Positions 21 to 64,000 of a DNA stretch of 64,000 nt are shown piece by piece; position 1 is the stretch's first letter; each line of letters starts with the position of its first letter. The translations under genes were made by a program, and so were the position numbers. Under the pieces are notes generated by a model that did no database searches, was not told the origin of the DNA, and was given only the letters and a program-made list of their open reading frames with translations. Origin of the DNA: Brachypterus glaber (Eukaryota; Arthropoda; Insecta; Coleoptera; Kateretidae); the NCBI GenBank assembly GCA_958510825.1, contig OY294045.1:12141916-12205915 (forward strand), given 5' to 3'.

Positions 21-905
21 TATATTACATTTCCCAAGGAAAGTCTTGCTTTGGTAAAAAAAAATAAAAAAATGCTTTTTTTTACGTTTTTTAACGTTTT
101 ATATCTGTATGCCTGTCGGTCTGTCTGTCTCTCTGTCCAGAAAATCTAATTTTTGAGCACGATAACTCGAGAACCCTTTGAGTTAAAGACTTTAAATTTG
201 GACCATATGTTGGTTATTCAAAGTTCTAGGCTAGGATTGTTTTGGTATACAGGGCCGAATTTAATGTGAATTTTGTTTAGTAAACGATACTGTGTGATGG
301 AGGTTTAGAACTCATTGTTAGAAAAATATTTTGACTGGGATTTCCAAACCAAAACAAAAGTTTCTAATTTCGATATTTCGGCATTATTTTTCTGTTATTT
401 GGAAACCCAAAAAGTCCCAAACTAAAGTTTGCAAATCTCTATCTCAAAACTTGATTTCCGAAATATGACTTTTATATTACATTTCCCAAGGAAAGTCTTG
501 CGTTGGTAAAAAAAAATAAAAAAATGCTTTTTTTTTACGTTTTTTAACGTTTTATATCTGTATGCCTGTCGGTCTGTCTGTCTCTCTGTCCAGAAAATCT
601 AATTTTTGAGCACGATAACTCGAGAACCCTAGGATTGTTTTTGGTAAAAATCGGGTGTATACAGGGCCGAATTTGAAAATGTGAACATGATGAATTTTGG
701 TTATTAAATGATGCTTTGTGGTGGAAGTTTATAATTCATTGATAGAAAAACATTTTGATTGTGATTTTCAACCAAACCCAAAAGTTTAAAATTTCGATAT
801 TTCGGCATTATTTTTTATACCGAAACTTAAAAAATCCCGAAATAAAGTTTGAAAATCTCAATCTCAAAACTGGATTTCCTAAGTATGATTTTTAAGTATA
901 TTACT
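21..905. repeat. Two-copy tandem duplication, ~450 bp unit
   Basis: The block starting at 21 recurs at 473. The first ~155 bp are almost identical and include a CTGTCTGTCT-type run followed by a stretch that reads TTTTTGAGCACGATAACTCG. The remainder of the unit aligns with small gaps up to about 905. A related CAGACGGA-type run lies near 39480-39525 on the other orientation. No coding potential is seen. The left edge of the window may cut an earlier copy. Confidence 0.85.
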
Positions 906-6360: not shown

Positions 6361-6462
6361 TATATTTACATTGATTTACATATTTTTACATGAGTTTACA
6401 ATGTCGGGCTATGTAATTTTAAGACGCGCGTGCGCTTTGGACAATACATGTTACATTTACAT

Positions 6463-6716
6463 GTTTGTTTAACCTCGTACTATTCTACTTAATTAAGCAT
6501 CCCCTAAGTCCAGGACTTGTGTGGGCTAGTAGTAGAGGGAACCACCGGCTTATACTGACTTTCGAACCAGTTTCTAGGGAGTGTCCGTTTCACTTATCGC
6601 CTTCGCCAAATTTCAATTATTAATTAACTGAAAAAGGCAAATCGGCGCCAGTGAGAATCGAACTCACGCTAGTAGACTTGCTATGCATACGCGCTAGCCA
6701 CTACGCTATGCCTCCC
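6463..6716 (-). mobile_element. tRNA-derived SINE, copy 1
   Basis: Read on the minus strand it starts GGGAGGCATAGCGTAGTGGC (pol III A box TAGCGTAGTGG), then a B box GAGTTCGATTC, then a body with GGCGCCGATTTGCC, and ends in a short GTTAAACAAAC tail. Three other copies in the window share the body (26061, 36640, 60051). Its head matches the 36640 copy. The homologous element at 53092-53835 lacks it, giving an approximate empty site. It is non-autonomous and would need a LINE reverse transcriptase. Confidence 0.88.
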
Positions 6717-7219
6717 ATAAACCATAACCAAGAATCATGAGACGGACCGTTTAATATTGTTATTGCTAGGTTAAAGTGTTAAAAGTGTAAAAAAGGTAAA
6801 TATTATTTAAGTACGATATTTAAATGCTTTATTTGTGGCCTAAAATTTACATTCATTATAAATTACGATCTTTATCAACAAATAGATCCTTAAAGAAAGA
6901 TGTAAACAGTTTATTAAACCAAATGAACTTTACGCTACGATATTTCAAAAAAGCTTTGACACAGAGACTTGTAATTTGGAACAAACATTTTCTAAGTAGT
7001 AAATATATATAAAAGTCTCTATGTCAAAGCGTTCTTGAAATATCGTAGTGATTAAGTTGTTTTAAAAGCACTGTATGTTAATTTTTCAAAAAATTATTAA
7101 ACACAGCATTAGTATTGTAGGCAAATATAAAAAAATCGTTCAAGCTGATTGTTTTTTTACGTTTGTTTTTATAATAAAAAGTCAATGCAAAATATTACCA
7201 TTCTGGACTATGTAATTTT

Positions 7220-9444: not shown

Positions 9445-10884
9445 TTATAAATGCTCTGAGGAAAATTCAGTTACTGCCCGTTTTAGATGATTAGCATAGC
9501 TTTTATCCTCAAGAATGTTAATTTTATATCTAGACCAAAATTTTAGAAATTCCCGATGGATTGACTCTCCAGACTGTTCCGACCAAATACCCAATCCATT
9601 GTTTGGCAAAAAATGTAGAGAATGTTTAAGGTGGTGAAGAGCCACGTGAATTTTTAAAGTCTCGCCCATTTCAATGGCCAAAAACATTTTTTTTAATTCA
9701 TTAAGATGTATGTCCAAATTTTCCCCTACTTTTCTTGTTGAAAAGCAATCTTTAATGACTTTATTTAATGATTTAAAGACGTTAACTAAAGGTAATAATC
9801 TAAGAAACGGTACATCCCCCAAGACTTCTTCATCATTTATTTTGTCAGCTTCTTTTGTCAATTTTCTACATGCATTGCCTTCAAAACAATCACCATGATA
9901 ATTTTTTGGGATAAGATTTAATTTTTTGGGCCAGTTTAGAGCTCTTTCGCTCCCGACAATGGGAACCAAGCCATTCCAAAACAAATGATTAACAAAGCCC
10001 TGAAGAATGTGCAGCTCCGGAACTATGCACTTTTCTATAACATACACATCATCTTCTTCGTGAAAAAGTGGAAGATTAACTGTACTGTTACATTCTTTTG
10101 CGAGCTTTTTGTTATTTCCTAATAAACAATATTTTTTATACGCCTCTCTGATATCTCCGTATGTTTTAAGCCTTAAACATTCTTCACTGGTATTTAAAGT
10201 ATCACATGCAATATCATTTTCTCGCTCTATATATTTGTTTAATTTTAAGTCATTTAAAGAAATAAAGCAATACGGACTTGGGTACGTGGAACTGGCGGTT
10301 TGCTGTCCGTTAATAATTAGCAGAAGTTTAAAGTCGGATACAAACCGAAACGGTATATTATTGATGTTTGTAACATCAAATAAAAGTTTCATATTATCAT
10401 ATGTCTCTTTTATTTGAGGTACAATACACACCATAATTAATTTGTTTACGCCACTTAATTTAAAATCCTTTTCAATGCTGCCGCCAGCAGAATACGTACT
10501 TCTTTTTTTTTCTTGTTCTTCCATATCACCCAACCCATCCAAATAGTCTTCAGGAAATATCGACATACAAATTTTGAAAAACCCTTGACCCCCATCTGCC
10601 ATGATTTTAATAGAATAATTGTTCCCTATGTCTTGCCTTTGATGTATTACCGCATCTAAAAGTTCAGACGCATCTGCATATACAATTGGCCTTTCTGCTT
10701 TTTTGTTTTCTTCTATATCAAAAAGAAATGAGCCTTCCTTGTATATGTTTTGCAAAGATTTTGAATTTTCGGAAGCCTGTTGTCGGTAATACGAAGGTAT
10801 AGATTTTTTTCCAGCACAACTACGTATACTAGTTATATGGAGACAAATGACAAAAATGTCGAATTTAAAGAAAAGTTTCAACAC
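9445..10884 (-). CDS. Putative DDE-type transposase of an unnamed eukaryotic DNA transposon
   Basis: An uninterrupted 479-codon ORF, by far the longest in the window, filling the centre of the 8258-11386 transposon. The computed start is GTG, and the frame stays open only a few codons further without ATG, so the true N-terminus is probably on an upstream exon; a plausible acceptor AG lies at about residue 21. Features I read as catalytic are Asp97 in MADGGQGFFK, Asp184 in VSDFKLL and Glu436 in GIWSEQSGESIH, plus conserved-looking YPSPYC (199-206), LHILQGFVNH, YHGDCFEGNACRKL and HVALHHL. This arrangement matches a family of repeated uncharacterised proteins that I recall from cnidarian and arthropod genomes. 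The role as transposase is inferred from the terminal repeats and acidic residues, not from a named domain. No internal stop was seen, so it may be recently active. Confidence 0.6.
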   Translation of the reverse strand: MLKLFFKFDIFVICLHITSIRSCAGKKSIPSYYRQQASENSKSLQNIYKEGSFLFDIEENKKAERPIVYADASELLDAVIHQRQDIGNNYSIKIMADGGQGFFKICMSIFPEDYLDGLGDMEEQEKKRSTYSAGGSIEKDFKLSGVNKLIMVCIVPQIKETYDNMKLLFDVTNINNIPFRFVSDFKLLLIINGQQTASSTYPSPYCFISLNDLKLNKYIERENDIACDTLNTSEECLRLKTYGDIREAYKKYCLLGNNKKLAKECNSTVNLPLFHEEDDVYVIEKCIVPELHILQGFVNHLFWNGLVPIVGSERALNWPKKLNLIPKNYHGDCFEGNACRKLTKEADKINDEEVLGDVPFLRLLPLVNVFKSLNKVIKDCFSTRKVGENLDIHLNELKKMFLAIEMGETLKIHVALHHLKHSLHFLPNNGLGIWSEQSGESIHREFLKFWSRYKINILEDKSYANHLKRAVTEFSSEHL

Positions 10885-11115
10885 TACATGACAAATAAAT
10901 TAAATAATATTTTTTATCAAATTTTAACCTATTAAAAATATGTTCATAAATATTTCAGAGGAGAATTCTGAATATGCTTTGTATATAAACTGAAAATTGA
11001 AGTTTTTTGGTTTTATTCTGTCCCAGGCATAACATTCTACGACCTCTCTTTAAAAACATATATACGTGTCAATTTAACCCCCAAAAAAAGTAGTGTCTAC
11101 TTTAATAATTATTTT

Positions 11116-13330: not shown

Positions 13331-13940
13331 AATTGATGCATTTAATAAACCATATTCAGCATTCGCTAATAAAAAACCTTTTTAATGTAATAAAATTATA
13401 TTGCACAACATTATGATACCAATTAATGTTCATAAATGCCCATTTGTGACGTAGCAAAAAATGCAAATAAATTAAACAATCCAATTAGTTACGTATTATT
13501 ATAACTACTATTTATATTAGAATTTATTTTATGGACTTATTTATTTTATTAATTTTATTTACTATTTATTTAGCCTAAGAGTTTTTGTAAGTGCAATTTA
13601 TTGTTTTAATATTACAAGATTTCACAATAATTTAAGTAAGCAGAAATTACTTTATTACACTTATTAAAACGTTTTTTGCCTCTGGGAGATCGCGAGTTTG
13701 AATCCCATTCCCGGCTGCCACTTTTTTTAAACTATTTAATTACTTTATTTATAAATGCTTAGAAGGGACCAGAGTAAGTGTTTTCCACGCGGGTGATGGT
13801 ACCGAATCATCACACGAGTGGAAAACACTCTACTAACATTTAACAAGATTTTCCCCAACATAAAAGTGAAAACAAAAGTATATCTTGAGCTCAAAATAGA
13901 AAGAGTTGAATGTAGGAAAGTAGGAAAATATATTTTTATT
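13331..13940. other. AT-rich spacer with a tRNA B-box-like fragment and a short hairpin
   Basis: Near 13690-13722, GCGAGTTTGAATCCCATTCC resembles the B box and T arm of a tRNA-derived sequence, but no A box or acceptor stem was found, so it is at most a SINE fragment. At 13769-13835, GAGTAAGTGTTTTCCAC and its complement form a small palindrome. Confidence 0.35.
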
Positions 13941-14169
13941 ATAACCCTTATATGATTTATTATTCCATCAATCTATTTTCTAATCATCGTACAGAGTGAT
14001 ATTGGTAGACTGACAGTTTCGGGCTGCTGTCTTCAACTTGCTACCATTCAAAGTCTCCAGAATAGGAGAGGTATGAGTAGTTGTCTACATCTAGAAATAG
14101 ATGGAGCACAAGTCTACATCAATCTAATGGCTATATTTCTTTTGCGAGTAAAGTCTAAAAACGTTTTCT

Positions 14170-14259
14170 TAATCAGCGTGCAGAGTTGACTCTTGGTACT
14201 GAAGAGGGCCAGCAGCCCGAAACTGTCAGTCTACCAATATCACTCTGTACGATGATTAG
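14170..14259 (+). ncRNA. Hammerhead ribozyme, unit 1
   Basis: Core CTGAAGA (14199-14205), stem II GGGC-CAGCA-GCCC (14206-14218), GAAA (14219-14222), small stem III made by CTG and CAG around a U (14223-14229) closed by the A-U pair, then UC with predicted cleavage after 14231. Proximal stem I is TTGGTA (14193-14198) with TACCAA (14232-14237). Distal stem I pairs GTGCAGAG with CTCTGTAC and continues through AATCA with TGATT, separated by an internal loop (TTGACTC / TATCA) suited to a loop II contact. Stems II and III are closed and stem I is open, so it is type I. All invariant bases of the family are present. Confidence 0.93.
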
Positions 14260-14523
14260 AAAATATATTGATGGAATAATAAATTAATATTTTTATAATT
14301 TTGTTTAAAATTAAAAATTTCTGTCCTTACTAATTCTACGTCTAACCACCCGTTAGTGGTACTATGTGCTTGAGACACACAAGTCTTCAACTTGCTACCA
14401 TTCAAAGTCTCCAGAATAGGAGAGGTATGAGTAGTTGTCTACATCTAGAAATAGATGGAGCACAAGTCTACATCAATCTAATGGCTATATTTCTTTTGCA
14501 AGTAAAGTCTAAAAACGTTTTCT

Positions 14524-14613
14524 TAATCAGCGTGCAGAGTTGACTCTTGGTACTGAAGAGGGCCAGCAGCCCGAAACTGTCAGTCTACCAATATCACTCT
14601 GTACGATGATTAG
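14524..14613 (+). ncRNA. Hammerhead ribozyme, unit 2
   Basis: Same core and stems as unit 1, shifted by 354 bp, with predicted cleavage after 14585. Cutting here and at unit 1 would release a 354-nt monomer (14232-14585). Confidence 0.93.
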
Positions 14614-14877
14614 AAAATAGATTGATGGAATAATAAATTAATATTTTTATAATGTTGTTTAAAATTAAAAATTTCTGTCCTTACTAATTCTACGTCTAAC
14701 CACCCGTTAGTGGTACTATGTGCTTGAGACACACAAGTCTTCAACTTGCTACCATTCAAAGTCTCCAGAATAGGAGAGGTATGAGTACTTGTCTACATCT
14801 AGAAATAGATGGAACACAAGTCTACATCAATCTAATGGCTATATTCCTTTTGCGAGTAAAGTCTAAAAACGTTTTCT

Positions 14878-14967
14878 TAATCAGCGTGCAGAGTTGACTC
14901 TTGGTACTGAAGAGGGCCAGCAGCCCGAAACTGTCAGTCTACCAATATCACTCTGTACGATGATTAG
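14878..14967 (+). ncRNA. Hammerhead ribozyme, unit 3
   Basis: All core bases and stems I-III are intact; predicted cleavage after 14939. Confidence 0.93.
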
Positions 14968-15231
14968 AAAATAGATCGATGGAATAATAAATTAATATTT
15001 TTATAATGTTGTTTAAAATTAAAAATTTCTGTCCTTACTAATTCTACGTCTAACCACCCGTTAGTGGTACTATGTGCTTGAGACACACAAGTCTTCAACT
15101 TGCTACCATTCAAAGTCTCCAGAATAGGAGAGGTATGAGTAGTTGTCTACATCTAGAAATAGATGGAGCACAAGTCTACATCAATCTAATGGCTATATTT
15201 CTTTTGCGAGTAAAGTCTAAAAACGTTTTCT

Positions 15232-15321
15232 TAATCAGCGTGCAGAGTTGACTCTTGGTACTGAAGAGGGCCAGCAGCCCGAAACTGTCAGTCTACCAAT
15301 ATCACTCTGTACGATGATTAG
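15232..15321 (+). ncRNA. Hammerhead ribozyme, unit 4
   Basis: Core and all stems intact; predicted cleavage after 15293. Confidence 0.93.
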
Positions 15322-15585
15322 AAAATAGATTGATGGAATAATAAATTAATATTTTTATAATTTTGTTTAAAATTAAAAATTTCTGTCCTTACTAATTCTA
15401 CGTCTAACCACCCGTTAGTGGTACTATGTGCTTGAGACACACAAGTCTTCAACTTGCTACCATTCAAAGTCTCCAGAATAGGAGAGGTATGAGTAGTTGT
15501 CTACATCTAGAAATAGATGGAGCACAAGTCTACATCAATCTAATGGCTATATTTCTTTTGCGAGTAAAGTCTAAAAACGTTTTCT

Positions 15586-15675
15586 TAATCAGCGTGCAGA
15601 GTTGACTCTTGGTACTGAAGAGGGCCAGCAGCCCGAAACTGTCAGTCTACCAATATCACTCTGTACGATGATTAG
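15586..15675 (+). ncRNA. Hammerhead ribozyme, unit 5
   Basis: Core and all stems intact; predicted cleavage after 15647. Confidence 0.93.
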
Positions 15676-15939
15676 AAAATAGATTGATGGAATAATAAAT
15701 TAATATTTTTATAATGTTGTTTAAAATTAAAAATTTCTGTCCTTACTAATTCTACGTCTAACCACCCGTTAGTGGTACTATGTGCTTGAGACACACAAGT
15801 CTTCAACTTGCTACCATTCAAAGTCTCCAGAATAGGAGAGGTATGAGTAGTTGTCTACATCTAGAAATAGATGGAACACAAGTCTACATCAATCTAATGG
15901 CTATATTCCTTTTGCGAGTAAAGTCTAAAAACGTTTTCT

Positions 15940-16029
15940 TAATCAGCGTGCAGAGTTGACTCTTGGTACTGAAGAGGGCCAGCAGCCCGAAACTGTCAGT
16001 CTACCAATATCACTCTGTACGATGATTAG
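15940..16029 (+). ncRNA. Hammerhead ribozyme, unit 6
   Basis: Core and all stems intact; predicted cleavage after 16001. Confidence 0.93.
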
Positions 16030-16293
16030 AAAATAGATCGATGGAATAATAAATTAATATTTTTATAATGTTGTTTAAAATTAAAAATTTCTGCCCTTAC
16101 TAATTCTACGTCTAACCACCCGTTAGTGGTACTATGTGCTTGAGACACACAAGTCTTCAACTTGCTACCATTCAAAGTCTCCAGAATAGGAGAGGTATGA
16201 GTAGTTGTCTATATCTAGAAATAGATGGAGCACAAGTCTACATCAATCTAATGGCTATATTCCTTTTGCGAGTAAAGTCTAAAAACGTTTTCT

Positions 16294-16383
16294 TAATCAG
16301 CGTGCAGAGTTGACTCTTGGTACTGAAGAGGGCCAGCAGCCCGAAACTGTCAGTCTACCAATATCACTCTGTACGATGATTAG
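16294..16383 (+). ncRNA. Hammerhead ribozyme, unit 7
   Basis: Core and all stems intact; predicted cleavage after 16355. Confidence 0.93.
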
Positions 16384-16647
16384 AAAATAGATCGATGGAA
16401 TAATAAATTAATATTTTTATAATGTTGTTTAAAATTAAAAATTTCTGTCCTTACTAATTCTACGTCTAACCACCCGTTAGTGGTACTATGTGCTTGAGAC
16501 ACACAAGTCTTCAACTTGCTACCATTCAAAGTCTCCAGAATAGGAAAGGTATGAGTAGTTGTCTACATCTAGAAATAGATGGAGCACAAGTCTACATCAA
16601 TTTAATGGCTATATTTCTTTTGCGAGTAAAGTCTAAAAACGTTTTCT

Positions 16648-16737
16648 TAATCAGCGTGCAGAGTTGTCTCTTGGTACTGAAGAGGGTCAGCAGCCCGAAA
16701 CTGTCAGTCTACCAATATCACTCTGTACGATGATTAG
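16648..16737 (+). ncRNA. Hammerhead ribozyme, unit 8 (stem II wobble variant)
   Basis: Stem II reads GGGT-CAGCA-GCCC, so one G-C pair becomes U-G, which still pairs. The stem I internal loop has one A-to-T change (TTGTCTC). Core bases are intact; predicted cleavage after 16709. Confidence 0.9.
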
Positions 16738-16813
16738 AAAATAGATTGATGGAATAATAAATTAATATTTTTATAATTTTGTTTAAAATTAAAAATTTCT
16801 GTCCTTATATGAT

Positions 16814-23628: not shown

Positions 23629-23813
23629 ACACAAAATTTTGAAAAATGTGTTTTTAGTGTAATTACTGCTCGTATTGAGATCTACTGATCTGTATAACTG
23701 GCATATTACATGAAACTATGCTATAGTTATATGTAATATGCCAGTTATACAGGTCGGTACATCCTAATAAGAGCCGTAATTACACTAAAAACACATTTTT
23801 CAAAATTTTGTGT
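23629..23813. mobile_element. 185-bp palindromic MITE at the 3' end of the transposase
   Basis: Outer arms ACACAAAATTTTGAAAAATG and complement (38 bp, continuing through GTGTAATTAC) enclose inner arms CTGTATAACTGGCATATTAC and complement (23690-23751). The transposase stop codon (23800-23802) falls inside the right arm, so the last few residues of the ORF come from this insertion or from the native terminus. Confidence 0.75.
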
Positions 23814-24886
23814 TATAACACTGTTCTGTAACGGGTGCGATATGTCTACTATTAATATCTGATATTTCCCCCCTAGCCCTAAGTACATCCTGTACTCTAT
23901 TACTCATAGAGAGAATTAAGTTTCTTATAGTATTCTGAGGTATATTTTCCCATTCTTCCTCGACTGCTATAATTAGTTCTGGAATTGTCGCTGGCGCTGG
24001 GTTCCTTGATCGAATTCTTCTTTTTAACTCATCCCAGAGATGTTCGATTGGGTTAAGATCGGGGCTATTAGCTGGCCACTCTAAGACGTCGATACCGACA
24101 TCTCTTAAGTATCGTCTGACATTTGCTGCAGTATGCGGCTTTGCATTGTCTTGCATGTAAACAAAGTCATCGCCTATAAATCCGGCGTAAGGTACGACGT
24201 GCTCTTCCAAAATTTCTTCGACATACCTTTCCGCTGTAAGACTTCGCCTTTGCCGTCCACGTTCTTCCCTTATAATAAAAACGGGTTCAGTTTTAGCTTC
24301 CAATGATATACCTCCCCATATCATGCACGATCCACCACCATAACTAACTTTTTCTGCAATGCAGGCCTGTGCATAACGTTCTCCAGGACGTCGGTAGACA
24401 CGCTGTCTTGCATCATTCCCAAATAGACATATCCTAGTTTCATCAGAAAACATAACCTTTGCCCATTGGTTTCTGTCCCAGTTTAAATGTCTTCTTGCAA
24501 ACTGCAGCCTGGCACGACGATGGTTAGCAGTGAGTTTAGGTCCAGTTGCGGCCTTATAAGAGGAAAGGTTTCTTTCAAAAAGCCTTCGACCAATAGTGGA
24601 CCTACTTACTGCTACACCTCTTGTTTCTTGAAGCCGTGATCTCAAATTAACTGAATTTAGACGACGATTCCGCAGGGAATTAAGCTCGATAAATCGGTCA
24701 TCCCGAGCGGACGTGCACCTATGTCTGTCTGTCACGTCGACTAAAGGAACCGGACTCCTCAAAACGTTGGAATACTCTTCTTACCGCTGCTCTCGTAATA
24801 TTTAACTGTTGAGCAACATAACGCTGACTGTGCCCTTCTTGTAGCAGAGCTACAGCTTGGGCAGCTACTTCCGGACTTGTTTCCAT
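23800..24886 (-). pseudogene. Tc1-like DD34E transposase, broken by a frameshift
   Basis: The downstream 320-codon ORF (23800-24762) carries the RNase H-like catalytic domain: Asp107 in MFSDETR, Asp205 in YMQDNAKPH and Glu240 in DLNPIEHLW, with exactly 34 residues between the last two. The N-terminal helix-turn-helix part (start ATG at 24884-24886, METSPEVAAQAVALLQ...) lies in another frame and stops at 24719-24721. The break is in the TGTC run at 24722-24733, which has three units. With two units the frames join as ...RRDRHRC, the usual Tc1 linker, so a 4-base slippage duplication is the likely lesion. Total length would be about 360 residues, normal for the family. The protein would act in the nucleus, cutting at TA. 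Confidence 0.9.
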
Positions 24887-26060: not shown

Positions 26061-26342
26061 GTTTTGTTTGTTTGTTTGTTTGTTTAACCTCATACTATTC
26101 TACTTGATTAAGCATCCCCTAAGTCCAGGACTTGTGTGGGCTAGTAGTAGAGGGAACCACCGGCTTATACTGACTTTCGAACCAGTTTTTATAGGAAGTG
26201 TCCGCTTCACTTATGTCTTCGCCAAATTTTCAATTATTAATTAACTGAAAAAGGCAAATCGGCGCCAGTGAGAATCGAACTCACGCTAGTTGTAGTAGAC
26301 TTGTCATGTACAGATGCGGTAGACCACTACACCAATCCTCCC
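26061..26342 (-). mobile_element. tRNA-derived SINE, copy 2 (different head)
   Basis: The body and 3' part match the copies at 6463 and 36640. The head reads GGGAGGATTGGTGTAGTGGT (A box TGGTGTAGTGG), unlike the other copies, and joins the common part at the B box GAGTTCGATTC. The tail is a GTTT/AAAC run (26061-26085). Confidence 0.88.
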
Positions 26343-26352
26343 ATATATTGTG

Positions 26353-35250: not shown

Positions 35251-36639
35251 GAAGAGATTAACTGCCTGATGAATATCTATCCAGAGGCGAGTAGCCAGTC
35301 ACTCTTACCTGGGTAGGCACCTGGGTGGCAGCTTTTTCCTACTTTGCTCTACAAAACTGCCATTCTAAAATGCGGTAGTCATTTATGCTAAATTTACTTT
35401 CATACACAATATAATTTTTTATTAGATATAATTACTCTGTGTTAAATGGCGTGCAATAACATACTGCAGTAAAGCACAACGTATATTATTAATAAATTTA
35501 ATTTACGTACGAGGTATATTAAATTTAAATTAATAATAAAGCAAAACCTCAACAAAACGTATGCATTTATAATCATACTAAAACACATTTTTAAATTAAT
35601 TATATTTGATGAACACTATATAAATATAGGGCTAAAGGCAGTATCTGACTCAAATAAACATAACACATAAAATTAGTATTAAAAACTCATTATTTGTATC
35701 ACCCACAACCCTCTCTGAAATCGAAATTATAATAAAAATGTGTGTAAAAAGCAATCAAGTGGTCTAGATGAAATAACTGGTAAAATAATAAAAGAAGTTT
35801 GTGATATAATGACTATTATATCACATACTTCTTTTATTTATATATACATGTATATTTAGGGAATTTCCTTTATGGATTGGTATTGAAGACTTAAAGGACT
35901 ATATCGTATTTTGGGCTAAATCGCCTGCAGCGATAAGACTTTACATGCATATAGATACATAAAAAATAAATACTTAGCCAAAATTTTAGCCCTTCTTATG
36001 TCCTAGAAAATACTTTAATTAATTGTTTTAATTACCAATTTTGACATAGGCTAATGAAGGATTTGGCAACATTGCACGTTTCATGTGTCAAGTGTCATGA
36101 AAGTAAAAGGTTTTGTTAGCAGGCTATTAAAATGTAAAAAGCTATTAAAAAATGTAAGAATTTTAAGCAGTTAATGTTTTATAGGTTAAATATAAAAAAA
36201 AATTATTGGTTTTAAATGATGCATTGTTGTCAGGTTTACGATAACAAAAAATGTTTATTTTTTTATGTAATAATGTTTTCTTCAAATAAACTTTATAAAC
36301 AGTTTTTTATCAATTTTCTTCATAATTTTGCACTGTTTTAAACAAAAACATATTTTCCTCATTTAGCCCAAAACTCCCATTTAAAACAATATCTTTCTTT
36401 ATGTTGCGAATAATAAATTTCTACACGGAGTCTGTCCGCCTGCCAGTAGTGTCATCTCGTAAATTCTTTATGAACTTTTAAATATGGCTGTCGTTAACGT
36501 CGTTTATTGTATATAACGCACTTTGGTACAAACATTTCTAATTTTGAACAAAATGTTTCTTTATTCGTGAAGCTGCGAAAAGTATGACAATATGCAGAAG
36601 ATAGCTAAAATCGAAAACTAATTGAAAATCATTCATTGT
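35251..36639. other. AT-rich spacer with one hairpin
   Basis: At 35797-35842 AAAAGAAGTTTGTGATATAA and its near complement form a ~20-bp stem hairpin. Nothing else was recognised. Confidence 0.4.
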
Positions 36640-36922
36640 GGGAGGCATAGCGTAGTGGCTAGCGCGTATGCATAGCAAGTCTACTATCGTGAGTTCGATT
36701 CTCACTGGCGCCGATTTGCCTTTTTCAGTTAATTAATAATTGAAATTTGGTGAAGGCGATAAGTGAAACGGACACTCCCTAGAAACTGGTTCGAAAGTCA
36801 GTATAAGCCGGTGGTTCCCTCTACTACTAGCCCACACAAGTCCTGGACTTAGGGGATGCTTAATTAAGTAGAATAGTACGAGGTTAAACAAACAAACAAA
36901 CAAACAAACAAACAAACAAACA
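36640..36922 (+). mobile_element. tRNA-derived SINE, copy 3, most complete
   Basis: Starts GGGAGGCATAGCGTAGTGGC (A box), B box GAGTTCGATTC at about 36689, body with GGCGCCGATTTGCC, AATTAATAATTGAAATTTGG, GGTGGTTCCCTC and GTCCTGGACTTAGGGG, and an (AAAC)n tail of about 40 bp. The length is ~283 bp. The long clean tail suggests a young insertion. Confidence 0.92.
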
Positions 36923-59650: not shown

Positions 59651-60050
59651 GTTAACAATTACATCACTATCGCTCTCGTAACTATGGATATACCCTTCTT
59701 CAATAAATGGATTTCAGTTACCCGGTGGCGAAAAATTACGTAATCAAACGAGACAGGATTGTTTACCGCAGCTTGAATTGAAAATCTAAAAGAAATCTAT
59801 TTGCAGAGGCTTTAAATTATTTTCAAATAGGGAATAATATATTATGCCTATACTGCCCGGCTAAGACAAGTTGTCCTATCTGCAAATTGGCCAGTTTTAT
59901 TGTTTTTGTTTGCACTTTTTAAAAACACGTTTAAATAAATATCGGGTTTATTTCTGCGTTAATTAAAAGAAAAATACGTGATATGCTTTGAAAAAATATT
60001 TATTTTTGTTAGTCATTAAGTGACACGAGAAATGACATTTGTAGATGTTT

Positions 60051-60293
60051 ATTTTTAACCTCGTACTATTCTACTTAAGCATCCCCTAAGTCCAGGACTT
60101 GTGTGGGCTAGTAGTAGAGGGAACCACCGGCTTTAATTGTCTTTTGAACCAATATATCTAGGGAGTACGCCTTCGCCAAATTTAAATTATTAATTAACTG
60201 AAAAAGGAAATCGGCGCCAGTGAGGTTTGAACTCACGATCATAGCTCAGTTTCAACGCTATATCGATGCCTTAGACCGCTGGGCTAATCTCCC
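60051..60293 (-). mobile_element. tRNA-derived SINE, copy 4 (third head type)
   Basis: The head reads GGGAGATTAGCCCAGCGGTC (A box TAGCCCAGCGG) and the B box GAGTTCAAACCTC, then the common GGCGCCGATTT body with small deletions. The tail is only GTTAAAAATAAAC-like. The head resembles a tRNA with a GGTCTAAGGC D arm. The most diverged of the four copies. Confidence 0.85.
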
Positions 60294-60605: not shown

Positions 60606-63600
60606 TCATATAAGTTATTTTCCACATAAATAAAGGTAAAGAAAGTAATTAAAATTAATAAAAGCGGTAGCACAAATTAAAATAGAAAATAAAAGACATA
60701 TTCAATGAATGATATTCATATATCTGCTTTTATTGGTTACATTGTCAAAAAGAAGCGGTTCCATTACCATTTGCGATAGCTCGAAGCTACGGCTGCTAGA
60801 TGGAGAAACAGGTTGAGAATAAATTGAAATATTAAATTATGGCAAGTGACACATGTAAAAATATCAACTTATTTATCTTGCTTAATAATCGGACCTATAA
60901 ATCATTGGTTTGCAGTAGTTTTATGTGACCAGTTTTTAAAGTGGGCAGATGAATATATGACCCACTGGAGGATAGCGAGGTGGGTATTACGGCCGAAGAT
61001 CATACGGCTGAAAGCGAGGTTTGTAGTAGTGGCAGCACTGATTTCAGTGACTCTCAAAGCGTAGGCAAGTATTTATACATTGACATATCTAACTGGTTGC
61101 TTATTACTATTCTCTGAAAATAATAAATATAATAAAATAATTGTTAAAATTTTTATAACAAAAAATTCTTAAAATACTCACGAATTTCTGGTTAGTGCTT
61201 TTTTTAATGGTTGCGTTGGTTTACGTTAACAATGGTTTGGTTTGGTAGTTTGCTGGTTTGGTGTTTTTTTTTTTTATGGGAGGAGTCGGTTTACGTTAAC
61301 AATGGTTTGGTTTGATAGTTTGCTGGTTTGGTGTTTTTTTTAATGGGAGGAGTTGGTCTACGTTGATAATGGTTTGCTTTCGTAGTTTGCTGGTTGCATA
61401 TAAGTTATTTTCCACATAAATAAAGGTAAAGAAAATAATTAAAATTAATAAAAGCGGTAGCACAAATTAAAATAGAAAATAAAAGACATATTCAATGAAT
61501 GATATTCATATATCTGCTTTTATTGGTTACATTGTCAAAAAGAAGCGGTTCCATTACCATTTGCGATAGCTCGAAGCTACGTCTGCTAGATGGAGAAACA
61601 GGTTAAGAATAAATTGAAATATTAAATTATGGCAAGTGACACATGTAAAAATATCAACTTATTTATCTTGCTTAATAATCGGACCTATAAATCATTGGTT
61701 TGCAGTAGTTTTATGTGACCAGTTTTTAAAGTGGGCAGATGAATATATGACCCACTGGAGGATAGCGAGGTGGGTATTACGGCCGAAGATCATACGGCTG
61801 AAAGCGAGGTTTGTAGTAGTGGCAGCACTGATTTCAGTGACTCTCAAAGCGTAGGCAAGTATTTATACATTGACATATATAACTGGTTGCTTATAACTAT
61901 TCTCTGAAAATAATAAATATAATAAAATAATTGTTAAAATTTTTATAACAAAAAATTCTTAAAATACTCACGAATTTCTGGTTAGTGCTTTTTTTAATGG
62001 TTGCGTTGGTTTACGTTAACAATGGTTTGGTTTGATAGTTTGCTGGTTTGGTGTTTTTTTTATGGGAGGAGTCGGTTTACGTTAACAATGGTTTGGTTTG
62101 ATAGTTTGCTGGTTTGGTGTTTTTTTTAATGGGAGGCGTTGGTCTACGTTGATAATGGTTTGCTTTCGTAGTTTGCTGGTTGCATATAAGTTATTTTCCA
62201 CATAAATAAAGGTAAAGAAAATAATTAAAATTAATAAAAGCGGTAGCACAAATTAAAATAGAAAATAAAAGACATATTCAATGAATGATATTCATATACC
62301 TGCTTTTATTGGTTACATTGTCAAAAAGAAGCGGTTCAATTACCATTTGCGATAGCTCGAAGCTACGTCTGCTAGATGGAGAAACAGGTTGAGAATAAAT
62401 TGAAATATTAAATTATGGCAAGTGACACATGTAAAAATATCAACTTATTTATCTTGCTTAATAATCGGACCTATAAATCATTGGTTTGCAGTAGTTTTAT
62501 GTGACCAGTTTTTAAAGTGGGCAGATGAATATATGACCCACTGGAGGATAGCGAGGTGGGTATTACGGCCGAAGATCATACGGCTGAAAGCGAGGTTTGT
62601 AGTAGTGGCAGCACTGATTTCAGTGACTCTCAAAGCGTAGGCAAGTATTTATACATTGACATATATAACTGGTTGCTTATAACTATTCTCTGAAAATAAT
62701 AAATATAATAAAATAATTGTTAAAATTTTTATAACAAAAAATTCTTAAAATACTCACGAATTTCTGGTTAGTGCTTTTTTTAATGGTTGCGTTGGTTTAC
62801 GTTAACAATGGTTTGGTTTGATAGTTTGCTGGTTTGGTGTTTTTTTTTATGGGAGGAGTCGGTTTACGTTAACAATGGTTTGGTTTGATAGTTTGCTGGT
62901 TTGGTGTTTTTTTTTAATGGGAGGCGTTGGTCTACGTTGATAATGGTTTGCTTTCGTAGTTTGCTGGTTGCATATAAGTTATTTTCCACATAAATAAAGG
63001 TAAAGAAAATAATTAAAATTAATAAAAGCGGTAGCACAAATTAAAATAGAAAATAAAAGACATATTCAATGAATGATATTCATATACCTGCTTTTATTGG
63101 TTACATTGTCAAAAAGAAGCGGTTCAATTACCATTTGCGATAGCTCGAAGCTACGTCTGCTAGATGGAGAAACAGGTTGAGAATAAATTGAAATATTAAA
63201 TTATGGCAAGTGACACATGTAAAAATATCAACTTATTTATCTTGCTTAATAATCGGACCTATAAATCATTGGTTTGCAGTAGTTTTATGTGACCAGTTTT
63301 TAAAGTGGGCAGATGAATATATGACCCACTGGAGGATAGAGAGGTGGGTATTACGGCCGAAGATCCTACGGCTGAAAGCGAGGTTTGTAGTAGTGGCAGC
63401 ACTGATTTCAGTGACTCTCAAAGCGTAGGCAAGTATTTATACATTGAGATATATAACTGGTTGCTTATTACTATTCTCTGAAAATTAATAAATATAATAA
63501 AATAATTGTTGAAATTTTTATAACAAAAAATTGTTAAAATACTCACGAATTTCTGGTTGGTGCTTTTTTTAATGGTTGCGTTGGTTTACGTTAACAATGG

Positions 63601-63983
63601 TTTGGTTTGGTAGTTTGCTGGTTTGGTGTTTTTCTTTATGAGAGGAGTCGGTTTAGGTTAACAATGGTTTGGTTTGGTAGTTTGCTGGTTTGGTGTTTTT
63701 TTTTTTATGGGAGGAGTCGGTTTACGTTAACAATGGTTTGGTTTGATAGTTTGCTTTTTTAGTGTGTTTTTTTTTTAATGGGAAGCGTTTGGTTTACGTT
63801 GATAATGGTTTGCTTTGGTAGTTTGCTGGTTGCATATAAGTTATTTTCCACATAAATAAAGGTAAAGAAAATAATTAAAATTAATAAAAGCGGTAGCACA
63901 AATTAAAATAGAAAATAAAAGACATATTCAATGAATGATATTCATATACCTGCTTTTATTGGTTACATTGTCAAAAAGAAGCG
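60606..63983 (+). repeat. 788-bp tandem array, 4.2 units
   Basis: Units begin CATATAAGTTATTTTCCAC at 60606, 61397, 62183, 62971 and 63833, and are about 98% identical. Each holds a conserved ~78-codon frame without ATG and, in its last third, three (four in unit 4) sub-repeats of ~65 bp starting GGTTTACGTTAACAATGG. The fifth unit breaks off at 63983, where AAGAAGCGG is followed by unrelated GAAAAGACCCAGC. Confidence 0.96.
61215..61395 (+). repeat. Internal ~65-bp sub-repeats of the 788-bp unit
   Basis: GGTTTACGTTAACAATGG, TAGTTTGCTGGTTTGG and GGGAGGAGT repeat three times here (and at the same place in each later unit; unit 4 has four). Related GGTTTACGTTAACGTTGG units are in the palindromic element at 26353-26694. 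Confidence 0.9.
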
Positions 63984-64000
63984 GGAAAAGACCCAGCTTG

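What the first reader, a model, noticed from the sequence alone, without database searches (positions are those of the whole stretch)
14030..16802. Every unit of a 354-bp tandem array carries a complete type I hammerhead ribozyme
Seen: CTGAAGA, stem II GGGC/GCCC, GAAA, a small stem III, UC, and a two-part stem I (TTGGTA/TACCAA plus GTGCAGAG/CTCTGTAC extended by AATCA/TGATT) occur eight times at exactly 354-bp spacing, with the one change in unit 8 keeping pairing (C-G to U-G). Known: hammerheads reside in satellites or retrozymes of newts, schistosomes, cave crickets, plants and several invertebrates. Inferred: transcripts self-process to 354-nt linear or circular RNAs. I know of no description of this unit, but I could not search.
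Basis: partly seen in the sequence, partly recalled or inferred. Interest (0 to 1): 0.96.

Follow-up and report, generated by a model that had tools for sequence, protein, structure and literature searches.

The report
Ribozyme retroelement with Penelope insertion scars
In what is likely an insect genome, tandem 354-base units each carry a hammerhead RNA motif predicted to cut itself; of 40 such arrays examined 34 have paired, opposite-facing arms and 25 a duplicated target site, so a Penelope-type reverse transcriptase likely pastes them in, which would answer who moves such elements.

Summary
In detail: eight intact type I hammerhead cores at exact 354-bp spacing, 0 chance hits in 300 shuffles. 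Rfam's gathering cut-off is not reached; the type I model matches end to end at 21.4 bits (cut-off 34). Looking beyond the coordinates changed the picture. The window array has a 75-nt inverted arm and an 11-bp target duplication. I examined 40 arrays of the same 648-Mb genome, grouped from the listed best matches. 34 of 40 are two-armed, head to head, the RNA 3' side outward; 66 of 74 outer ends fall at one of two unit positions, about 50 or 97 nt after the ribozyme cut; 27 of 34 two-armed arrays have one of each; 25 of 40 have a target duplication of at least 8 bp (mode 12; control 1.5%); AAC precedes it in 16 of 21. This resembles the published signature of Penelope-like elements. A young Penelope family (78 scored copies) lives in the genome; 30 of 40 scored match ends lie 54-63 nt after its hammerhead-like motif (read by eye), near the first retrozyme site. 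Best reading: a metazoan retrozyme likely integrated by Penelope machinery. Cleavage, circles and trans-mobilisation are untested.

The parts
13943..13945 (+). AAC immediately 5' of the target duplication (target-site motif, short-arm side)
   Evidence: sequence; AAC in 16 of 21 insertions with a duplication of 11-13 bp, background 1.8%
13946..13956 (+). left copy of the 11-bp target-site duplication CCTTATATGAT (last 2 bp overlap the inverted arm)
   Evidence: chance 1e-4 to 2.2e-4 by two controls
13955..14029 (-). short inverted arm: reverse complement of unit positions 333..354,1..53; outer end at unit 53 (site A)
14029..16807 (+). long arm: 7.85 tandem 354-bp units, unit 152 to unit 98 (outer end at site B)
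16803..16813 (+). right copy of the target-site duplication (first 5 bp overlap unit 94-98)
14193..14237 (+). hammerhead copy 1: stem I inner 6 bp, core CTGAAGA, stem II GGGC/GCCC, GAA, stem III ACT/AGT, C17; predicted cut after 14231
14547..14591 (+). hammerhead copy 2; predicted cut after 14585
14901..14945 (+). hammerhead copy 3; predicted cut after 14939
15255..15299 (+). hammerhead copy 4; predicted cut after 15293
15609..15653 (+). hammerhead copy 5; predicted cut after 15647
15963..16007 (+). hammerhead copy 6; predicted cut after 16001
16317..16361 (+). hammerhead copy 7; predicted cut after 16355
16671..16715 (+). hammerhead copy 8 (stem II C-G to U-G at 16687); predicted cut after 16709
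14345..14360 (+). AC-rich hairpin ACCAC-CCGTTA-GTGGT, unit 114-129, 3' of site B; predicted fold only

Best explanation
The array is a hammerhead-bearing, non-coding retrozyme insertion whose two outward-facing arms, target duplication and fixed end points resemble the published structural signature of a Penelope-like element (PLE), so it was likely integrated by a PLE reverse transcriptase-endonuclease acting in trans. Proposed steps (all inferred): a transcript of an existing array is cut by the hammerheads, possibly as pairs of adjacent motifs, to 354-nt units or multiples that are circularised; a PLE complex cuts an AT-rich target on both strands 12 nt apart, the stronger cut lying next to AAC/GTT; each cut strand primes reverse transcription inside the RNA, one at site A (about 50 nt after the ribozyme cut) and the other at site B (about 97 nt after it); one polymerase runs several times round the circle and makes the long tandem arm, the other stops early and makes the short arm; the two cDNA ends join, often through a few bases of microhomology. 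Shown by calls: the cores, two-armed anatomy, fixed ends, target duplication and motif, largely uniform arrays, and an abundant near-identical PLE in the genome. Not shown: cleavage, circles, and the PLE protein acting on this RNA.
For: Hammerhead: 8 cores, 0 in 300 shuffles; RF00163 full-length sub-threshold match; 158 of 173 genomic copies keep CTGANGA and GAA. Anatomy in 40 arrays (window plus 39 fetched): 34 of 40 have a head-to-head arm, none tail to tail; 66 of 74 outer ends lie in unit 49-66 (33) or 88-108 (33), uniform expectation 8.2; one of each in 27 of 34 two-armed arrays, A+A in 1, B+B in none. Duplications of 8 bp or more in 25 of 40 against 1.5% of 1560 swapped flank pairs; permutation sum 351 against at most 196 in 5000; 15 of the 25 are 12 bp; 23 of 40 have both a second arm and a duplication. 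After trimming for overlap, in those 25, 23 of 24 A ends fall at 49-54 and 23 of 24 B ends at 93-99. AAC in 16 of 21, P about 2e-24, nominal. Arms overlap by 1-9 bp in 24 of 34. Of 32 arms compared, 31 are at least as close to their own array as to the median other array. Published PLE features that match: inverted pLTR head to head, duplications of 8-10 bp, a tail on one of the inverted pLTRs (PMC3846280); both target strands cut and extended, two internal start sites, an ATT cut motif and an AC-rich stem loop (PMC11167929, abstract). PLE present: ORF P0121 aligns over its length at 49% identity to an Anolis carolinensis protein; 78 scored of 5779 candidates, 99-100% identical; 30 of 40 scored matches of its 3' region (of 1014 candidates) end 54-63 nt after its hammerhead-like motif (motif position).
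Against: Six of 40 arrays show no second arm in the cluster counted; 6 of 34 two-armed arrays have an end outside the A/B ranges and one is A+A. 15 of 40 lack a duplication of 8 bp. The two PLE copies read at both ends show no target duplication (none of 9 bp in L048; none of 6 bp in L049), so 12 bp and AAC are not shown for the PLE itself. The PLE's hammerhead-like motif was read by eye: the descriptor did not flag it in L048 (one core letter differs) and Rfam gave no hammerhead match in L049, so the shared distance to site A rests on that reading. Flanks of the 40 PLE matches were not read, so their ends may be joins rather than insertion ends. PLE and retrozyme share no identical stretch beyond 8 nt in the part compared, and the PLE's far end (+156: the query copy and one of the other 39) is not site B (+93-99). 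No protein-RNA test. The 40 arrays are best-scored relatives of the window unit, hence young; A/B ranges were set after seeing the data. The minimum-energy fold pairs the catalytic core away (-37.6 against -31.3 kcal/mol for the hammerhead form). The core does not change clearly more slowly than the rest (1.2% against 1.4%), so selection for cleavage is not shown.
Confidence: 0.78

Rival explanations
1. Ordinary satellite DNA that happens to carry a hammerhead, spread by unequal exchange, as described for newts and cave crickets.
For: Units of the window array are 98-99% alike; it has a period-3 pattern (7.6 mismatches per kb at three units against 12.0 at one) and L017 a period-2 pattern (1.1 against 6.4), as unequal exchange can make.
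Against: Dispersed short arrays (1.75 to 9.42 units in the long arm) with target duplications, a target motif and fixed outer ends in one register. Exchange after insertion can coexist with this.
Confidence: 0.06
2. Retrozyme moved by a LINE through target-primed reverse transcription with twin priming, which also gives 5' inversions.
For: LINE insertions can be 5'-inverted (recalled); Nematostella repeats with hammerheads have 15-bp duplications compared with those of LINEs (PMC4918200, passages).
Against: No poly(A) or other 3' tail at the right ends of the 25 insertions with duplications (0-4 extra bases; the other 15 not checked); inversion in 34 of 40 with ends at two fixed internal RNA positions, one of each in 27 of 34, fits the PLE descriptions.
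Confidence: 0.13
3. The inverted arm is an assembly or amplification artefact (fold-back chimera).
For: Fold-back chimeras are common in amplified DNA (recalled); the window junction has a 6-nt fold-back match (0.6% of position pairs).
Against: Duplicated target bases lie outside both arms in 23 of 40, and the anatomy recurs at 34 of 40 loci with different inner junctions.
Confidence: 0.02

Closest known systems
Metazoan non-LTR retrozymes (Acropora, Mytilus, axolotl; PMC7229834: abstract, results parts 1-2 of 3 and discussion read)
   Same: Type I hammerhead, non-coding tandem units of a few hundred bp, low GC, many copies, duplications longer than 4 bp when present, co-resident PLEs.
   Different: Unit sequence and 354-bp length not matched to any described one here; stem III is 3 bp with a 3-nt loop; paired outward-facing ends at two fixed positions are not mentioned in the parts read ('inverted' occurs 0 times in the main text).
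Penelope-like elements (Adineta Pen2a, PMC3846280 passages and discussion; Anolis Poseidon, PMC11167929 main text)
   Same: Head-to-head inverted arm, target duplication, two internal start sites with a tail between them on one end, tandem tendency, hammerhead, AT-rich target.
   Different: No ORF; hammerhead with extended stem I and a stem III rather than the minimal PLE kind; site A/B spacing about 45 nt against a published tail of 30-40 bp; duplication mostly 12 against 8-10 bp.
pDo500 satellite of Dolichopoda cave crickets (PMC2837043, passages read)
   Same: Insect tandem repeat with a hammerhead; double-hammerhead cleavage proposed.
   Different: About 500-bp units, a satellite making up about 5% of one species' genome; no insertion anatomy in the passages read.
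Plant LTR retrozymes (PMC4918200, passages read; PMC7761336, passages and section 9)
   Same: Non-autonomous element with hammerhead and circular RNA.
   Different: Type III hammerhead in LTRs, 4-bp duplications, tRNA primer site, Gypsy machinery.

Membership tests
metazoan non-LTR retrozyme | type I hammerhead with complete conserved core | tested here: met
   8 of 8 in the window; CTGANGA and GAA in 158 of 173 genomic copies; RF00163 below its cut-off
metazoan non-LTR retrozyme | tandem non-coding units of about 150-450 bp, GC below 50% | tested here: met
   354 bp; GC 36% at 14001-16000; no stop-to-stop frame of 120 aa within the array
metazoan non-LTR retrozyme | dispersed mobile insertions with target duplications longer than 4 bp | tested here: met
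   25 of 40 with 8 bp or more, mode 12
metazoan non-LTR retrozyme | self-cleaving transcript, monomeric circular RNA | not testable with these tools
   needs a transcription assay and RNA data
Penelope-like element | ORF with telomerase-like RT and GIY-YIG endonuclease | tested here: not met
   no such frame in the unit; so it is not itself a PLE, but such frames exist in the genome
Penelope-type insertion (works like) | head-to-head inverted arm with both RNA 3' sides outward | tested here: met
   34 of 40
Penelope-type insertion (works like) | two internal start sites, the tail on one end | tested here: met
   66 of 74 ends at A or B; 27 of 34 one of each
Penelope-type insertion (works like) | AT-rich target with short duplication | tested here: met
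   flank AT 73.9% against 69.4% further off, P 0.003; duplications in 25 of 40
Penelope-type insertion (works like) | same target motif and duplication length as the resident PLE | tested here: inconclusive
LINE-mobilised SINE | A-rich or repeat 3' tail next to the duplication | tested here: not met
   0-4 extra bases at right ends of the 25 insertions with a duplication; other 15 not checked
hammerhead satellite DNA | long arrays without insertion boundaries | tested here: not met
   dispersed arrays with defined ends

The most novel reading that the evidence does not exclude
Animal retrozymes are the SINEs of Penelope elements: a circular ribozyme RNA is reverse transcribed from both cut target strands at once, one enzyme of a pair starting at site A and its partner at site B of the RNA, and this division of labour (27 of the 28 insertions with both ends in A or B) is a rule of Penelope integration not described in the papers seen. 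The hammerhead would serve to make the circle that lets one polymerase lay down many units in one insertion.
Probability: 0.55. Interest if true: 0.88.

Novelty: new variant of a known kind. Interest (0 to 1): 0.78.

Why it matters
The 2020 review read here says metazoan retrozyme repeats show no motif telling which autonomous element moves them (PMC7761336 section 9), and the 2020 study names PLEs as a strong candidate only (PMC7229834 discussion). The insertion scars here point to the likely partner, give start sites, cut motif and duplication length, and supply a PLE and a substrate from one genome for a direct in vitro test. They also give many recent insertions from which the poorly understood Penelope integration reaction can be read.

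Tried and rejected
Fold-back self-priming as the origin of the inverted arm: the window junction has a 6-nt match, but over 34 junctions the arms overlap by 1-9 bp in 24, abut in 1, overlap by 34 in 2 and have 1-14 extra bases in 7, at varied places, so joining of two cDNAs is simpler. Distance of the single window end to the published Anolis start site: about 6% by chance, too weak alone; replaced by the 40-array count. Selection on the ribozyme: none detectable (2 of 13 variant positions in the motif, P 0.33). Covariation: not attempted, copies too alike. The exact core in viral and prokaryote collections: 0, and a looser pattern in viral contigs: 0; uninformative. A PLE in the window: none by tblastn with P0121, nor by Pfam on 13 ORFs (of 70 ORFs of 75 aa or more). 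A dimer folding script crashed and was redone more simply: stem III as hairpin +2.1, as intermolecular duplex -8.3 kcal/mol, so paired hammerheads are plausible. Rows dropped: the AAC count uses 21 of 25 insertions with duplications (lengths 8, 9, 9 and 16 left out). Rows '1-50' and '305-354' look like clipping and were not used. L025, L026, L039 and L046 hold further array pieces outside the cluster counted; L026's far piece ends at unit 104.
Full report
What the window shows. Eight copies of a complete type I hammerhead core lie at exact 354-bp spacing (descriptor 8 hits, 0 in 300 shuffles). Reading: stem I TTGGTA/TACCAA extended by further pairs, CTGAAGA, stem II GGGC-CAGCA-GCCC, GAA, stem III ACT-GTC-AGT, C17. 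Rfam's gathering cut-off is not reached; RF00163 matches 1-45 of 45 at 21.4 bits when 51 nt are given, and RF03152 scores 21.3 bits with 93 nt. The array has no frame of 120 aa. As a circle, unit 4 folds better than its shuffles (z -4.7, 0 of 150 as good). The minimum-energy fold hides the core. Stem III is poor as a hairpin (+2.1) and good as a duplex between two copies (-8.3 kcal/mol), which suggests, without proving, dimer action as reported for axolotl retrozymes (PMC7229834).

A 75-nt arm at 13955-14029 is the perfect reverse complement of unit 333..53, and CCTTATATGAT stands at both outer ends (chance 1e-4 by flank shuffles, 2.2e-4 by random junctions).

The genome. After ten unanswered tries genome search answered: the window lies in a 648-Mb genome of 842 contigs; the unit has 183 matches, 40 of 982 first-look candidates being scored, and not all matches are listed. 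I grouped the listed rows into 40 arrays and fetched the 39 outside the window. The host is likely an insect: a frame at 9445-10899 has its named relatives in two beetles, a wasp and a fly among the listed hits (animal groups recalled). The species is not known to me.

Anatomy of 40 arrays. 34 of 40 have two arms head to head, none tail to tail; in those 34 both outer ends are the 3' side of the sense RNA. Of 74 outer ends, 33 lie at unit 49-66 (site A), 33 at 88-108 (site B) and 8 elsewhere. 27 of 34 two-armed arrays have one A and one B end; of the 28 with both ends in A or B, 27 are A+B and one (L033) is A+A, about 1e-7 under independent equal choice (hand arithmetic). The long arm of the 34 ends at A in 17, at B in 12 and elsewhere in 5, so neither site belongs to one arm. 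The 34 short arms run from 20 to 632 nt; the 40 long ones from 1.75 to 9.42 units.

Target. 25 of 40 have a duplication of at least 8 bp against 1.5% of 1560 swapped pairs; 15 of the 25 are 12 bp and 5 are 13 bp. Trimmed for overlap, 23 of 24 A ends lie at 49-54 and 23 of 24 B ends at 93-99. In the 21 with 11-13 bp, AAC ends the left flank in 16; on the right side T stands at +2 in 13 and at +3 in 15, a weak mirror of AAC. Since the duplication lies between AAC and the arm, each primer end must carry the 12 bases; I infer 3' overhangs with cuts before GTT on one strand and before NTT on the other. The published Anolis enzyme prefers ATT. Ranges and motif were read off the same data, so the P values are nominal.

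Template. At unit 336, where copies carry mainly A or C, 36 of 40 arrays are uniform; L030, L038, L041 and L046 are mixed, and single deviating letters occur elsewhere in several arrays, the window among them. Unit pairs differ by 16.4 per kb within arrays and 24.5 between. L017 repeats in steps of two units, the window in steps of three. This fits circles of one, two or three units copied round and round, but unequal exchange could also do it. Of 32 short arms compared, 31 are at least as close to their own array as to the median other. Arms overlap by 1-9 bp in 24 of 34.

The ribozyme in the family. 158 of 173 copies keep CTGANGA and GAA; the core is not clearly slower than the rest (1.2% against 1.4%). 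The copies are young; selection is not shown.

The partner. Among the fetched loci L036 carries a PLE reading frame with a GIY-YIG-like motif and YVDD (motifs recalled); Pfam finds RVT_1 but not PF01541 in it, while 3 of the 120 listed relatives carry PF01541. It aligns along its length to an Anolis carolinensis protein at 49%. The genome holds at least 78 copies at 99-100% identity (78 scored of 5779 candidates), 11 of them with an 821-aa open frame. A truncated copy in L049 is itself two-armed: a 41-nt inverted arm, both outer ends 54 nt after the cut expected in its hammerhead-like motif. That motif was read by eye; Rfam does not match it as a hammerhead. Of 40 scored matches of the PLE 3' region (of 1014 candidates), 30 end 54-63 nt after that point (14 at 57), 38 within 54-80; the other two are the query copy and one ending at +156. 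The retrozyme's site A, measured likewise, is at 50-65. Against this: the PLE's far end (+156) is not site B, no identical stretch beyond 8 nt was found, the flanks of those matches were not read, and neither PLE copy read at both ends has a target duplication.

Literature. PLE features: PMC3846280 (passages, discussion) and PMC11167929 (abstract, main text). Metazoan retrozymes: PMC7229834 (abstract, results parts 1 and 2 of 3, discussion, passages), PMC7761336 (passages, section 9). Passages only: PMC2837043, PMC4918200, PMC6155905, PMC12910113. My ten paper searches (two returned nothing) listed no title or abstract start that describes two-armed retrozyme insertions; subscription papers are mostly not held, so this is not proof of novelty.

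Verdict. A new retrozyme family, of a known kind, whose insertions carry a Penelope-like signature. The ribozyme half is ordinary for animals; the insertion half is the surprising part and makes an open question testable.

Noticed in passing
6462-6719, 26063-26345, 36636-36908, 60035-60237: Copies of a tRNA-derived repeat of about 260 bp (two hold a tRNA match of equal score), probably a SINE family.
   Followed up: partly
60607-63984: A second tandem array with a period near 790 bp containing 66-69-bp subrepeats rich in TGGTTTGG, running to the window end.
   Followed up: no
23800-24780 (-): Open frame of 326 aa with DDE_3 and HTH_Tnp_Tc3_2 domains, a Tc1/mariner-type transposase.
   Followed up: no
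9445-10899 (-): 484-aa frame without Pfam match, with many relatives at about 42-57% identity; perhaps a transposon protein.
   Followed up: partly
13777-13829: Near-perfect 22-bp hairpin just left of the array, near a tRNA B-box-like stretch and a T run.
   Followed up: no
L048 5009-7177; genome-wide: Very young, abundant Penelope family.
   Followed up: partly
L010 53-1723 and 4837-5724: Frames with Baculo_F and DUF1759 domains flank a retrozyme array; likely an env-bearing retroelement. Only observed.
   Followed up: no
13955-14029 with 14210-14284: In a read-through transcript the short arm is predicted to pair with the first hammerhead over 74 of 75 bases, masking one of eight ribozymes and making long double-stranded RNA.
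   Followed up: partly
inner arm junctions of L009-L047 and the window: Inner ends are common at unit 151-180 and from 301 round to about 45, the latter around the ribozyme, perhaps where the polymerase stalls on structure.
   Followed up: no
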